Source of the DNA: Methylocapsa palsarum
GTDB lineage: Bacteria; Pseudomonadota; Alphaproteobacteria; Rhizobiales; Beijerinckiaceae
Reading direction: 5' to 3'
Length of the DNA: 64,000 bases
Assembly (NCBI RefSeq): GCF_900114285.1
Contig: NZ_FOSN01000007.1
Span: 1 to 64,000, forward strand
The notes beneath the pieces were generated by a model that saw nothing but the letters and a program-made list of their open reading frames with translations, had not been told where the DNA came from and searched no databases. The position numbers and the translations under genes are program-made. Positions 44,902 to 59,332 of the stretch are shown piece by piece (positions within the stretch are counted from its first letter, which is position 1; every line of letters begins with the position of its first letter).

Positions 44902-45015
44902 AGAGCGCTTTCCGATCGCATGAAGTCATGCGATCGATCAGAAATCGCTCCAGAGTCAAAGACATGAGCATATTCTTATCGATTGGATTGATTCAATCCG
45001 ATCGGAATATGCTCT
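44902..45015. repeat. Two-hairpin palindromic interspersed repeat, copy A (reverse orientation)
   Basis: This copy runs opposite to copies B and C. It begins AGAGCGCTTTCCGATCGCATG and ends GGAATATGCTCT. It has a CGATCGCATGA hairpin at 44913-44937 and a GATTGGATTGA/TCAATCC hairpin at 44979-45003, joined by a conserved spacer (AAATCGCTCCAGAGTC). It lies between the start of purH and the end of copA, both on the minus strand, so it may end copA-to-purH read-through or act in mRNA. Confidence 0.9.
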
Positions 45016-45072
45016 AGCACGAAGGCCGTGCGCGGCCTACCCGCCCGGCCGGATTTGTCTCGTTGCTCGGAA

Positions 45073-47706
45073 TTATTGCGCGGGCGCCGAACGAAACGCC
45101 GCGGCTTCGACTGGCGCGGCTCCTCCGCCGCTCAGCGGCTTGAACCGCCGCAGCCGCAGCGCATTCAGGACGACAAACACCGACGAGAACGCCATCGCGC
45201 CCGCGGCCAGCATCGGCGACAGCAGAATTCCAAAGGCCGGATAGAGCGCCCCCGCCGCGACGGGGATCAGAATGACGTTATAGGCGAACGCCCAGAACAG
45301 ATTCTGCTTGATATTGGCCATCGTCACCCGGCTCAGCGCCACCGCCGTCGCCACGGCGCCGATATCGCCGCCCATCAGCACGACGTCGGCCGCCTCGATG
45401 GCGACATCGGTTCCGCCCCCGATCGCAATTCCGACATCGGCCTCCGCAAGGGCGGGCGCGTCATTCACGCCGTCGCCGACAAAGGCCAGCGAGCGATGGC
45501 GCGCGCGCAGCTGCTTGAGCGCCTCGATCTTGCCCTCCGGCAAAACCTCGGCCACGACGGAGGAAATGCCAACCGCCTTCGCGACGGCTTCCGCTGTCGC
45601 GCGATTGTCGCCTGTCACCATGACGACATCGAGCCCCTGCCCGCGCAACGCCTCGACCGCCTGACGCGCCGATGGGGAAACCGGATCGGCCACAACGATC
45701 AGAGCGGCGAGCTTGCCGTCGATCGCCGCATAGAGCGGCGATTTGGCCTCTTCGCCGAATTTCGCGGCGGCGTCCTTGAAGACGGCGATACCGACGCCCT
45801 TCATGGCCATGAACCGATCGGCGCCGACGGCGACATGACGCCCTCCGACATCGGCTTCGACGCCGAAACCCGGTCTTGAGGCAAAGTTCCGCAGGTTCCC
45901 GGAGGCGCGCCCGCCCCGTTTCGACCACGGCCAGCGGCCGTGCGCTTCCATGGCGGCCTCCCCTGCCGCGGCGCCCTCGCCAACGCCGGACCTGGCGGCG
46001 GCCGCCGCGATCGCGACCGCCACAGGATGTTCGGACCGTGATTCGACCGCGGCGACCAAGGACAGAACCGTGTCGCGGTCAAATCCCGGCGCGACCAGAA
46101 AATCGGTCAGTTCCGGGCGTCCTTTTGTGATCGTCCCGGTCTTATCCAGCGCGATCGCGGTGACGTTCGAAAGCGTCTGAAGCGCATCGCCCTTGCGGAA
46201 GAGAACGCCCAGTTCCGCGCCCCGGCCGGTGCCGACCATGATCGAGGTCGGCGTCGCAAGCCCCATCGCGCAGGGGCAGGCGATGATGAGCACCGCGACC
46301 ATCAGGGTCAGCGCATAATTCAGCGAGGGCGCGGGTCCGAACCAGAACCAGACCGCGAAGGTCAGCGCCGCGATCGCCATCACGGCGGGAACGAAAACAG
46401 CGGTCACCTTGTCGGCCAGCGCCTGGATCGGCAGTTTCGCGCCCTGCGCCCGCTCGACCATGCGGATGATCTGGGCGAGCCTCGTATCGGCCCCGGTCTC
46501 CGTCACTTTGAACGAGAAGCTGCCCGTCGTGTTGATCGTTCCGCCGACGATTGTCGCGCCCAACGCCTTGGCGACCGGACGGGGCTCCCCGGTCAGCATC
46601 GATTCGTCGACATAGGACGATCCGTCCACGACCGTCCCGTCAGCGGGAATTTTTTCGCCCGGTTTGACGAGAACGATATCGCCGACGACGACATCGTCGA
46701 GATCGACGTCCACCGTAGCGGCGCCGCGCACGACATGAGCGGTCTTTGGCTTGAGGCCGATCAGGCCGGCGATCGCCGCGCCCGCCTTGCCCTTGGCGCG
46801 CGCCTCGAGACTTCGCCCAAGCAGAATGAGCGTGACGATCACGGCGGCGGATTCGAAATAGACGTTCGATGTCCCGGCAGGAAACAGGGCGGGCGCGAAC
46901 GTGACGAGCGTCGAATAGATGAAGGCCGCGCCCGAGCCGAGGGCGACGAGCGCATTCATCTCGGGGGCGAGACGCCACAGGGCGGGCAAACCGGATTTGA
47001 AAAACCGGAAGCCTGGACCCGCCAGAACCAAGGCGGTGAGAACAAACTGAATAATCCGGCTCGCCTGCATTCCGACGGTCTGCATGACGAAAGAGTGAAA
47101 AGCCGGAAACAGATGCGAGCCCATCTCGAGGACAAAGACCGGCGCGGTCAGCGCGAGGGCGAGTAAGAACGCCCTGAAAGCGCTGGCGGCTTCGTTTGGG
47201 CCCGCGCCGTGATCATGCGCGCCGCCGCCATGGCCGTGGCCCTCGTGATTGATATAATGCGCCGGATAACCGGCCGCGGCGGACGCTTTCGCCAGCGCCC
47301 TTTGGTCCGTGACCCCGGCCGCCACGCGGACGGTCGCGGTCCTGGTCGCGAGATTGACCGCCGCCTCGACGACGCCGGGCTCCGCCTTCAGCGCCTTTTC
47401 GACCCGATTCACACAGGAAGCGCAGCTGAGATTGTCGACGGCGAATTCCATCGTCTCCGTCGCCGATCCAAATCCGGCCTTGCCGATGGACGCGATCACC
47501 GGCGCGACGTCGGGAGCGCCGGTGAATACGACCTCCGCCCGCTTTGTCGCCAGATTGACCGACGCCGACGCGACGCCCGGCGCCGCGCGAATGGCCTTCT
47601 CCACCCGCGCCACGCATGAGGCGCATTCCATCCCGTCGATCCGCAGGCTCAGGGCGGCGTTCGAATCAGCGGACGCAGTTCGCATGGAGTCGTCCTTTGC
47701 GGTCAA
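45073..47706 (-). CDS. copA: Copper-exporting P1B-type ATPase
   Basis: The 877-residue inner-membrane pump exports Cu(I) using ATP. Two N-terminal heavy-metal domains carry CASC (GMECASCVARVEKA, about residue 28; NLSCASCVNRVEKA, about 95). A His-rich loop (HGHGGGAHDHG) follows before the first helix. The transport motif is IIACPCAMGL. Catalytic motifs are DKTGTITKG, SEHPVA and GDGVNDAPALAEADVG. The nucleotide domain has about 30 extra basic residues (AHGRWPWSKRGGRASGN, coded at 45869-45950) not usual in relatives. Downstream of a copZ-like gene (54 bp) and near csp1, it fits a copper-handling unit. Confidence 0.95.
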   Translation of the reverse strand: MTAKDDSMRTASADSNAALSLRIDGMECASCVARVEKAIRAAPGVASASVNLATKRAEVVFTGAPDVAPVIASIGKAGFGSATETMEFAVDNLSCASCVNRVEKALKAEPGVVEAAVNLATRTATVRVAAGVTDQRALAKASAAAGYPAHYINHEGHGHGGGAHDHGAGPNEAASAFRAFLLALALTAPVFVLEMGSHLFPAFHSFVMQTVGMQASRIIQFVLTALVLAGPGFRFFKSGLPALWRLAPEMNALVALGSGAAFIYSTLVTFAPALFPAGTSNVYFESAAVIVTLILLGRSLEARAKGKAGAAIAGLIGLKPKTAHVVRGAATVDVDLDDVVVGDIVLVKPGEKIPADGTVVDGSSYVDESMLTGEPRPVAKALGATIVGGTINTTGSFSFKVTETGADTRLAQIIRMVERAQGAKLPIQALADKVTAVFVPAVMAIAALTFAVWFWFGPAPSLNYALTLMVAVLIIACPCAMGLATPTSIMVGTGRGAELGVLFRKGDALQTLSNVTAIALDKTGTITKGRPELTDFLVAPGFDRDTVLSLVAAVESRSEHPVAVAIAAAAARSGVGEGAAAGEAAMEAHGRWPWSKRGGRASGNLRNFASRPGFGVEADVGGRHVAVGADRFMAMKGVGIAVFKDAAAKFGEEAKSPLYAAIDGKLAALIVVADPVSPSARQAVEALRGQGLDVVMVTGDNRATAEAVAKAVGISSVVAEVLPEGKIEALKQLRARHRSLAFVGDGVNDAPALAEADVGIAIGGGTDVAIEAADVVLMGGDIGAVATAVALSRVTMANIKQNLFWAFAYNVILIPVAAGALYPAFGILLSPMLAAGAMAFSSVFVVLNALRLRRFKPLSGGGAAPVEAAAFRSAPAQ

Positions 47707-47760
47707 GGCAAGCTTCGCGTGGGTCGGGCGCTCGTCCGGGCGGCTAATCTGGCGGCCCGA

Positions 47761-58193: not shown

Positions 58194-58438
58194 ATGACCT
58201 TTGCGGCGCCTTCCGAACTTTGCTTCGCCTTCCAGACTTTGCGTCGCCGTCGCGTCATCGCCAGAGCGCAGTTCGCGGGCGCGGTCGGCAGCGTTGCATT
58301 AGGCGGGGTCATCTGCGAATCTTCCGTATGCAGCGGACAGCCCTTTCTTTTCTCTTTTTTCCTGTCTCTTGTCTCTTGATCTCTTGTTTTTGATCTTTTG
58401 GCCGCATCGTTTGCGGACCTCTTTAGCGGCGGGACCCC

Positions 58439-59215
58439 ATGTTCGCCAGAGCCACGCTTTATGGTTTGCCGGTCTGGATCGTCTTCCTGGCCGCGGCAGG
58501 GTCGCTCGTCCTCGTCACCGAACTGGGGTTCCGGGGCGGGCGGCGTCTTGGACGAGCGGCGCAGGAGAGGGCGAAATTCGAGACCGGATCGATTCAGGCC
58601 TCGGTGCTTGGCCTGCTCGCCCTGCTCCTTGGGTTCACCTATTCCGCGTCGATGTCGAATTTCCAGGAACGGCGCACGCTCGTCGTCAAGGAAGCCAACG
58701 CGATCGGCACGGCCTATTTGAGGGCGCAATTGCTGCAAAAGCCTCTGGCGCAGCAGGCTGGCCTTTTGCTGCGGCGCTATACGGATCTTCACCTTCAATG
58801 GGCGGCGGCGACGGAGACTGAGGCGGCGCGAATCGCAAGGCAGGGCGATGAGGTCCAAAAAGAGATCTGGGCGATCGCCGCGCGCGCCGCCGAGCAGGAT
58901 CGCGGGCCCGTGACGGCGCTTTTCATCTCCTCCGTCAACGATCTCATCGACGTCGGCGGCGAGAGGGTCGCCTCCAACTCCAACCGCCTTCCGATTCAGA
59001 TGTTCGGACTGCTCGGCGTCCTCGCGCTCGTCGGGATGGGACTGACCGGCTATGGCTGCGGCCTCTCCGGCGAACGATCCTTCGCCGCGACCACGACGGT
59101 TTCCCTGCTGATCGTCGCGCTGACACTCGTCATCTGCGACATCCATGAGCCTCGGCAAGGACTCATCCACGAAAGTCAGCAGAGCCTGATCGACGCGCGT
59201 GCGGCGATGCCCTAG
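58439..59215 (+). CDS. DUF4239-like membrane protein
   Basis: The 258-residue protein has a first helix (GLPVWIVFLAAAGSLVLVTEL, about residues 9-29), a second (SIQASVLGLLALLLGFTYSASM, about 51-72), a helical middle region and two C-terminal helices (LFGLLGVLALVGMGLTGYGCGL; TTVSLLIVALTLVICDI). This is the bestrophin-like DUF4239 layout; the function is unknown. The stop TAG at 59213-59215 falls in the first bases of repeat copy C, so the repeat supplies the end of the gene. Confidence 0.8.
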   Translation: MFARATLYGLPVWIVFLAAAGSLVLVTELGFRGGRRLGRAAQERAKFETGSIQASVLGLLALLLGFTYSASMSNFQERRTLVVKEANAIGTAYLRAQLLQKPLAQQAGLLLRRYTDLHLQWAAATETEAARIARQGDEVQKEIWAIAARAAEQDRGPVTALFISSVNDLIDVGGERVASNSNRLPIQMFGLLGVLALVGMGLTGYGCGLSGERSFAATTTVSLLIVALTLVICDIHEPRQGLIHESQQSLIDARAAMP

Positions 59216-59332
59216 AGCATATTCCGATTGGATTGGATTGAATCAATCCAATCGACAAGACTATGCGCAAGCTTTTGACTCTGGAGCGATTTCTGATCGA
59301 CCGCATGACTCCATGCGATCGGAAAGCGCTCT
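59214..59332. repeat. Two-hairpin palindromic interspersed repeat, copy C
   Basis: 119 bp, same orientation as copy B and nearly identical. An extra GGATT in the first hairpin (GATTGGATTGGATTGA) accounts for the 5 added bases. It ends GGAAAGCGCTCT. It begins inside the TAG stop of the DUF4239-like gene and lies before the convergent RNase T2 gene. Confidence 0.92.

What the first reader, a model, noticed from the sequence alone, without database searches (positions are those of the whole stretch)
44902..59332. A family of two-hairpin palindromic repeats, three full copies and a mini copy, sited at gene ends
Copies at 44902-45015 (reverse), 52419-52532 and 59214-59332 are nearly the same sequence: outer ends AGAGC and GCTCT, a GATTGGATTGA hairpin, a conserved spacer and a CGATCGCATGA hairpin. 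A 45-bp form with only the second hairpin lies at 13254-13298. Two copies (59214 and 13254) begin within the TAG stop codon of the upstream gene, so TAGAGC of the element ends the protein. Two lie between convergent genes. This pattern suggests a mobilised REP/MITE-like element or a structured terminator, spread genome-wide. No IS gene that could move it is in the window.
Basis: seen in the sequence. Interest (0 to 1): 0.7.

Follow-up and report, generated by a model that had tools for sequence, protein, structure and literature searches.

The report
Mobile two-hairpin repeat at stop codons
A 112-base mobile DNA repeat with two hairpins is scattered through this bacterial genome, and in the part examined nearly half of its insertions sit exactly on a gene's stop codon, which the first letters of the repeat supply, so it can spread without shortening the gene.

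Summary
The repeats are real and genome-wide: at least 150 full copies in the 4.1 Mb genome. Each is a two-hairpin element, core GAGC...GCTC of about 112 bp, with TA outside each end. In 24 copies from 12 genomes, 21 of 39 stem pairs show compensatory change.

The main finding goes beyond the observation given. In 51 of 116 non-genic insertion events of a 1.36 Mb sample, the element's first three bases (TAG) are the stop codon of the neighbouring gene. Flanks point to a YTAR target, mostly CTAG. Insertion into the TA of a TAA/TAG stop would rebuild it as TA+G. Orthologues of three such genes, nifA included, end within 0-3 residues of the same place in relatives without the element there.

Best reading: a MITE-like element moved by a TA/YTAR-targeting transposase, similar in build to Bru-RS/RIME/CIR repeats. 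No RAYT was found, and no U-tract terminator at the window copies. The mover is unproven, no clean empty site was found, and 44% at stops exceeds the 20% expected from CTAG sites alone. Two copies lie in frame inside genes, one in lnt. Precedent: GTAG-type REPs are reported to supply TAG stops.

The parts
44901..45016 (-). Full copy 1 (TAGAGC...GCTCTA on the - strand), between a P-type ATPase gene (45073-47706, -) and purH (-); not at a stop codon. The longest ORF of purH starts inside it.
52418..52533 (+). Full copy 2, between convergent genes 51598-52347 (+) and 52558-53391 (-); 70 and 24 bases from the two stop codons
59213..59333 (+). Full copy 3; bases 59213-59215 (TAG) are the stop codon of the Bestrophin-like gene 58439-59215; convergent with the RNase T2-like gene 59348-60217 (-)
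13253..13299 (+). Single-hairpin form; bases 13253-13255 (TAG) are the stop codon of the DUF1622 gene 12779-13255; right half matches hairpin 2, left 19 bases resemble the end of an insertion sequence of a relative
52420..52468 (+). Hairpin 1 of copy 2 (GAGCATATTCCGATTGG...CACATTC-side arm...GTGCTC)
   Evidence: structure, bases 3-51 of the copy
52482..52533 (+). Hairpin 2 of copy 2 (TGGAGCGATTTC...GGAAAGCGCTCTA)
   Evidence: structure, bases 65-116 of the copy

Best explanation
A non-autonomous, MITE-like mobile element. The core, usually 112 bp from GAGC to GCTC, consists of two long hairpins joined by a short linker, with imperfect terminal inverted repeats. A transposase acting in trans inserts it at YTAR, mostly CTAG, leaving TA on each side. 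Because the core begins with G at both ends, insertion into the TA of a TAA or TAG stop codon rebuilds TAG and leaves the protein unchanged. Most insertions into coding DNA are lost by selection, so copies gather at TA-type stop codons and in the gaps behind genes; a few survive in frame, because the insertion is 114 bp (38 codons) and one reading frame of it is open. Copies later decay by point mutation and by loss of hairpins, giving single-hairpin forms. Shown: copy number, ends, target consensus, alignment with stop codons, conserved protein ends, stem covariation, hairpin losses between two close genomes. Inferred: the TA duplication as an event, movement by a DDE transposase in trans, and purifying selection as the filter.
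For: At least 150 full copies. Of 134 full copies in 1.36 Mb, 20 of 44 in a first set and 30 of 90 in a second set from other contigs lie exactly at a stop; per insertion event 51 of 116 non-genic ones, where a random intergenic point would give 0.5%. Outer base C or T in 122 of 130 ends of non-stop events; at stop events the base before TAG is never G (C 35, T 10, A 6) and the base after the far dinucleotide is G or A in 48 of 51. Orthologues of three at-stop genes end within 0-3 residues in 20 comparisons, with no element in the roughly 160 bases shown; of 8 further genes with usable relatives 6 end within one residue. The stop pattern recurs in G010, 9 of 20. Stem covariation 21 of 39 pairs, 0 of 500 shuffles. 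Hairpin deletions between G002 and G014. IS711 of Brucella duplicates TA of YTAR (PMC2266754, passages).
Against: No clean empty site with a duplicated TA was found in two close genome pairs. 12 of 16 adjacent pairs have period 111-112, most with core-to-core junctions lacking TA, and 16 of 16 are head-to-tail, which random re-insertion would not give. The share at stops exceeds what CTAG (47 of 238 non-coding sites) or YTAR (167 of 1385) predicts, so target plus selection against genic hits is not the whole story. Of 32 partial copies 13 have a stop elsewhere inside the element against 9 exactly at its end. Two of 8 genes end 10 residues earlier or 7 later than the relative. No transposase with matching long ends was found.
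Confidence: 0.72

Rival explanations
1. A REP-type palindrome moved by a RAYT (HUH, single-strand) transposase that recognises the hairpins, as for GTAG-tagged REPs.
For: Hairpins are conserved by compensatory change. GTAG REPs are said to often provide the TAG stop and to lie behind genes (PMC3733652, section 15).
Against: No PF01797 match in the own genome with a working control. Both ends carry the same TAGAGC, flanked by TA at YTAR, and the element is over 110 bp rather than the 20-40 bp that the abstract gives for REPs.
Confidence: 0.08
2. A host-useful 3' element: the copies are kept behind genes because the hairpins protect mRNA ends or end transcription, and this explains the excess at stops.
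For: Excess at stops beyond target choice (51 of 116 against 20% for CTAG, p 3e-9); 39% of events in convergent gaps, which are 18% of gaps and 13% of non-element gap bases, and 12% in divergent gaps, which hold 31% of those bases; covariation.
Against: No T run behind the window copies. The sites of three at-stop genes are empty in up to seven relatives, so the element is not needed there. Orientation relative to the gene is only weakly skewed (34 against 19, p 0.05). Loss of insertions between promoters and genes would give the same gap bias.
Confidence: 0.15
3. Narrower version of the best reading: the mover is an IS630-type (DDE_3) or an IS5-type (PF01609) element with GAGC ends that lives in the genus.
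For: An IS630-type element in the own genome (C48) and one in G010 have TAGAGC at both ends and TA on both sides, with sites reading CTAA and CTAG. A PF01609 element of G010 has the putative end TAGAGCGTAGTTACGATTT, which the small form at 13253 matches at 18 of 19 bases.
Against: The IS630-type ends share only GAGC (with TA) with the repeat. G017, G019 and G033 have R1 matches but no PF13358 match. None of the 7 own PF01609 loci has such an end, and the opposite end of the G010 PF01609 element matches only 16 of 28, no better than chance hits in the other loci. Six IS630-type places checked in held G014 and G002 stretches show no TA-flanked inverted ends.
Confidence: 0.3

Closest known systems
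Bru-RS1/Bru-RS2 repeats of Brucella, with IS711
   Same: Palindromic repeats of about 103-105 bp in many copies (222 matches, 69 of them full by the table in PMC2267715 as I read it, passages), linked to an IS that duplicates TA of YTAR (PMC2266754, passages).
   Different: Sequences were not compared here. In Brucella the IS inserts near or into the repeat; here the repeat itself inserts at YTAR.
RIME (Rhizobium-specific intergenic mosaic elements)
   Same: Intergenic palindromic repeats of related bacteria (passages in PMC2573895); two large palindromes and about 108 bp are recalled, not from a call.
   Different: 400 kb of S. meliloti pSymB gave no match to the profile or model.
CIR (CcrM-associated intergenic repeats of Caulobacter and Brucella)
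   Same: Two arms joined by a linker, TA at the ends, GANTC motifs (PMC2229807, passages).
   Different: CIR are described as not intragenic with stops in all six frames; this element has an open frame and two in-frame genic copies. The GANTC content is not clearly above composition.
GTAG-tagged REPs
   Same: Termini often provide TAG stops; mostly behind genes (PMC3733652, section 15).
   Different: REPs are 20-40 bp; no RAYT here; two equal TAGAGC ends.
RUP of Streptococcus pneumoniae (IS630-Spn1 MITE)
   Same: About 107 bp, inverted repeats, insertion at TA, over-represented in convergent gaps (PMC2229807 and PMC3049150, passages).
   Different: RUP shares its long ends with its IS; no such partner is shown here.
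Rickettsia palindromic elements (RPE)
   Same: Palindromic inserts carried in frame inside protein genes (PMC3733652 section 15).
   Different: Genic copies are few here: 4 of 120 events, of which 2 are read through.

Membership tests
MITE (DDE type, TA target) | Short, non-coding, multi-copy, with terminal inverted repeats | tested here: met
   about 112-bp core, both ends GAGC; 134 full copies in 1.36 Mb
MITE (DDE type, TA target) | Target-site duplication shown at an empty site | tested here: inconclusive
   TA on both sides and YTAR consensus, but no clean empty site
MITE (DDE type, TA target) | Ends shared with an autonomous element | tested here: inconclusive
   only GAGC shared with the IS630-type ends; 18 of 19 between the small form and one end of a G010 PF01609 element
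REP/BIME (RAYT-associated) | RAYT (Y1_Tnp) gene in the genome | tested here: not met
   0 matches, control positive in 5 of 14 genomes
CIR | Two hairpin arms joined by a linker | tested here: met
CIR | GANTC sites as a conserved feature | tested here: inconclusive
   132 of 134 copies have one, but TCNGA is enriched more; 23 of 24 across species against 18.2 expected by shuffling
CIR | Strictly intergenic, stops in all frames | tested here: not met
   two genes read through a full copy in frame
Bru-RS / RIME | Sequence similarity to the published repeats | tested here: inconclusive
   Bru-RS not compared; 400 kb of S. meliloti pSymB without a match
Intrinsic terminator | Stem followed by a T run | tested here: not met
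   none flagged at the three full window copies
Known Rfam family | Match above a gathering score | tested here: not met
   0 matches in the window

The most novel reading that the evidence does not exclude
A stop-codon-docking transposon: the element does not merely tolerate stop codons but prefers them through some feature of gene ends beyond the YTAR letters, and its own first base rebuilds the stop. It would be a mobile element whose ends have been shaped so that its preferred site is made of translation stops; in the sampled third of the genome 65 gene ends coincide exactly with it, and 69 of 299 TAG stops among 1173 genes lie in it.
Probability: 0.2. Interest if true: 0.75.

Novelty: new variant of a known kind. 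Interest (0 to 1): 0.52.

Why it matters
It gives a concrete, testable reason why palindromic repeats gather at gene ends: a four-letter target that contains TAA/TAG, an end that restores the stop, and loss of genic hits. In the sampled part of this genome about 6% of genes (69 of 1173) end on a TAG that lies in the element, so gene annotation, stop-codon statistics and 3' UTR structure all depend on it. It also separates what target choice can explain (about 20%) from the observed 44%, which makes the question of parasite versus useful 3' element measurable. The same alignment to a stop is seen in another species (9 of 20 copies) and at one copy on an annotated Methylosinus plasmid.

Tried and rejected
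RAYT/IS200 mover: PF01797 absent. Rfam: no match in the window. Intrinsic terminator: no T run at the window copies. Protein-coding role of the element: one frame is open in copies of the own and some other species, but 11 of 24 sequences have a 113-bp insertion, so a frame is not kept. GANTC/CcrM role: present in 132 of 134 copies and 5-fold over the genome, but TCNGA is 7.4-fold, and shuffles give 18.2 against 23 of 24; not used as evidence. Clean empty sites: sought in G002/G014 and G007/G009; none clean; for the second G007/G009 pair of blocks no alignment came back and the script stopped there. Transposase with matching ends: 4 PF13358 and 7 PF01609 loci of the own genome, one each of G010. 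S. meliloti: 400 kb of pSymB, no useful match, no gene table. Papers: eight searches; no listed title reports this repeat in Methylocella or Methylocapsa. I saw listings, passages of eight papers and one section (PMC3733652, section 15); no paper in whole.

Cautions on counts: my notebook says 13 of 14 same-genus genomes carry the repeat and 13 tandem pairs of period 111-112; the answers show 12 of 14 and 12 of 16. The tally '18 of 40' includes the own genome. Match counts can count one palindromic copy on both strands. Gene ends are from my own simple gene finder, except on the Methylosinus plasmid. Partial copies (32) were kept apart. The stretches of the second set, and some of C37, were chosen because they hold copies, so they test position, not density. 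One row of the tandem list (period 12) is an artefact and was left out. The test used 114 events (2 at stretch ends left out of the denominator); with 116 p is 3e-9.
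Full report
What is there. With the outer TA included the full copies span 44901-45016 (-), 52418-52533 (+) and 59213-59333 (+). Each has two hairpins of about 50 bases joined by a linker, and both ends read TAGAGC inwards. A covariance model built from 32 copies (A2; R1) finds only these three full copies in the window at 128-149 bits; apart from their own reverse strands the next hit is 17 bits.

How many. A blastn of the own genome saw 289 candidates, of which 40 were scored. 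R1 returned 150 full-length matches at 111-149 bits; 150 is also the number scored, so the true number is at least that. The genome lies among the Beijerinckiaceae: the gene at 52558-53391 has its best relatives in a Beijerinckiaceae MAG, Methylocapsa and Methylocella. G002 has a contig of the same length (182,772) as the Methylocella tundrae record behind L064.

Where they sit. I took 1,361,198 bases of the own genome, called 1173 genes with a simple Markov gene finder and located copies with a profile: 134 full and 32 partial. In the first set (44 full copies) 20 lay so that the TAG of TAGAGC is exactly the stop codon of the adjacent gene; in a second set from other contigs 30 of 90 did; 3 of the 134 full copies had a stop elsewhere inside the element. 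Of the 32 partial copies 9 were at a stop and 13 had a stop elsewhere inside. Collapsing tandem arrays gives 120 events: 56 between same-strand genes, 44 convergent, 14 divergent, 4 in genes, 2 at stretch ends; 51 of the 116 outside genes are at a stop. A random intergenic point would do this in 0.5% of cases. Convergent gaps hold 39% of events but are 18% of gaps. Counting partial copies, 69 of 299 TAG stops of the sample lie in an element, with 6 TAA and 11 TGA; 65 gene ends coincide exactly with an element end.

Why there. The base outside the TA is C or T in 122 of 130 ends of non-stop events, A in 6 and G in 2. At stop events the base before TAG is C 35, T 10, A 6, G 0, and the base after the far dinucleotide is G 43, A 5, T 2, C 1; the far dinucleotide itself is TA in 22 of 51 and mutated in the rest. 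So the site is YTAR, mostly CTAG, and at stops the old codon was most simply TAG or TAA. Non-coding CTAG sites outside elements are stops in 47 of 238 cases, YTAR sites in 167 of 1385; 51 of 114 is above both (p 1e-9 and 4e-18). Target choice plus loss of genic insertions thus explains much, not all.

The protein is spared. For three at-stop genes in one stretch (a NifA whose last residue meets the last position of its model, an aminotransferase-like gene and a ferredoxin-like gene) 20 comparisons with six or seven relatives each end within 0-3 residues of the own end, and by eye none has the element in the roughly 160 bases shown; G001 has TAG at all three. A fourth at-stop ORF there, of 51 codons, gave no match. 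Of 65 other at-stop gene ends searched against held relatives, 8 had a usable relative: 6 end within one residue, one ends 10 residues earlier than the relative and one 7 later; in one of the 8, G014 carries the element at the same stop. The 65 include the three genes above.

In genes. Of 4 full copies in genes, two are read straight through in frame, in lnt (TIGR00546, 289 bits) and in an MFS transporter; two other genes end inside the copy. The insertion is 114 bp and the frame CTA-GAG-CAT is open for 38 codons. In 11 of 24 sequences, most of them from other species' subfamilies, the insertion is 113 bp, so the open frame looks like a by-product.

Across species. By blastn 12 of 14 same-genus genomes and 5 of 25 others match; by R1 15 of 16 genomes tested match, G008 being the exception. 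Subfamilies differ between species while pairing is kept: 24 sequences of 12 genomes, 96.0% of cells paired, 21 of 39 pairs with changes on both sides, 0 of 500 shuffles as high on any of five measures; sliding the partner by one to three columns drops pairing to 30-45%. The consensus fold was derived from the same alignment. The stop pattern recurs: G010 9 of 20, G014 2 of 4, G002 4 of 5 (these two share sites), G007 1 of 3 full copies. The 20 G010 copies have 97.7% mean pairwise identity, the 134 own copies 88.6%. On Methylosinus trichosporium plasmid pOB3b1 a copy of hairpin 2 ends exactly on the annotated stop codon of a gene; there the codon reads TAA, the element end being TAAAGC. Of the five other plasmid records with a match, four were looked at and none has an annotated gene end there in PLSDB's incomplete table; a second OB3b record was not opened. 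R1 also hits Methylocystis silviterrae (L100), a Methylocapsa MAG (L060) and, weakly, one Bradyrhizobium (L088), among 61 loci searched. No phage record matches.

Life history. G002 and G014 align at 97-98% over about 300 kb. Copies there are shared or differ by loss: a whole element missing between 7-bp repeats, an internal deletion leaving one hybrid hairpin, and loss of hairpin 2. Such losses are the likely source of single-hairpin forms. I saw no new insertion between these two. Adjacent copies in the own sample are head-to-tail in 16 of 16 pairs, 12 with period 111-112 and mostly a direct GCTC|GAGC type junction without TA, which the simple model does not explain.

The mover. No RAYT. An IS630-type element in the own genome (C48) and one in G010 have TAGAGC at both ends, TA on both sides and YTAR sites, but share only GAGC with the repeat; G017, G019 and G033 have R1 matches without any PF13358 match. 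The small form at 13253 begins with 19 bases that match at 18 the putative end of a PF01609 element of G010; the other end of that element is not convincing. IS711 of Brucella, linked to the Bru-RS repeats, duplicates TA of YTAR (PMC2266754, passages). These are leads.

Verdict. A MITE-like two-arm repeat of the Bru-RS/RIME/CIR build, not reported in this genus in the papers my searches listed, with a quantified and mechanistically readable docking on stop codons. GTAG REPs are already said to often provide TAG stops (PMC3733652, section 15), so the phenomenon has a precedent in another repeat class.

Noticed in passing
G000:C37:118127-119974 (L205:2127-3974) and G000:C37:202951-204090 (L208:3951-5090): Full copies lie in frame inside lnt and an MFS transporter gene and add about 38 residues each.
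   Followed up: partly
window 44834-44921 (-): The longest purH ORF starts inside copy 1 (MRSESALE...); an annotation taking that start would carry a repeat-derived N-terminus.
   Followed up: no
G000:C48 (L269:1381-2428) and G010:C1 (L376:1381-2430): IS630-type elements of 1048 and 1050 bp with TAGAGC at both ends and TA flanks, with a change of frame near a run of A.
   Followed up: partly
window 13253-13271 and L375:1105-1123: Left end of the small form matches 18 of 19 bases of the putative end of a PF01609 element in G010.
   Followed up: partly
C37_116001, C40, C46, C47, C55, C56, C29, C43 stretches of the own genome: Tandem arrays of the element, 16 of 16 adjacent pairs head-to-tail, 12 with period 111-112 and mostly no TA at the junction; unexplained.
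   Followed up: partly
L190 about 5100-5260 (G002:C131:25100-25260) and L197 about 4600-4800 (G014:C3:3244600-3244800): A different tandem hairpin repeat, GAGCATGATGCCGAAAAGTTGCAGACTTTTCGGACCCACATCATGC, with differing copy number in the two genomes.
   Followed up: no
S. meliloti pSymB near 73485, 194787 and 231463 (L318, L320, L321): A repeat of about 65 bp seen in self-comparison, unrelated to the element.
   Followed up: no
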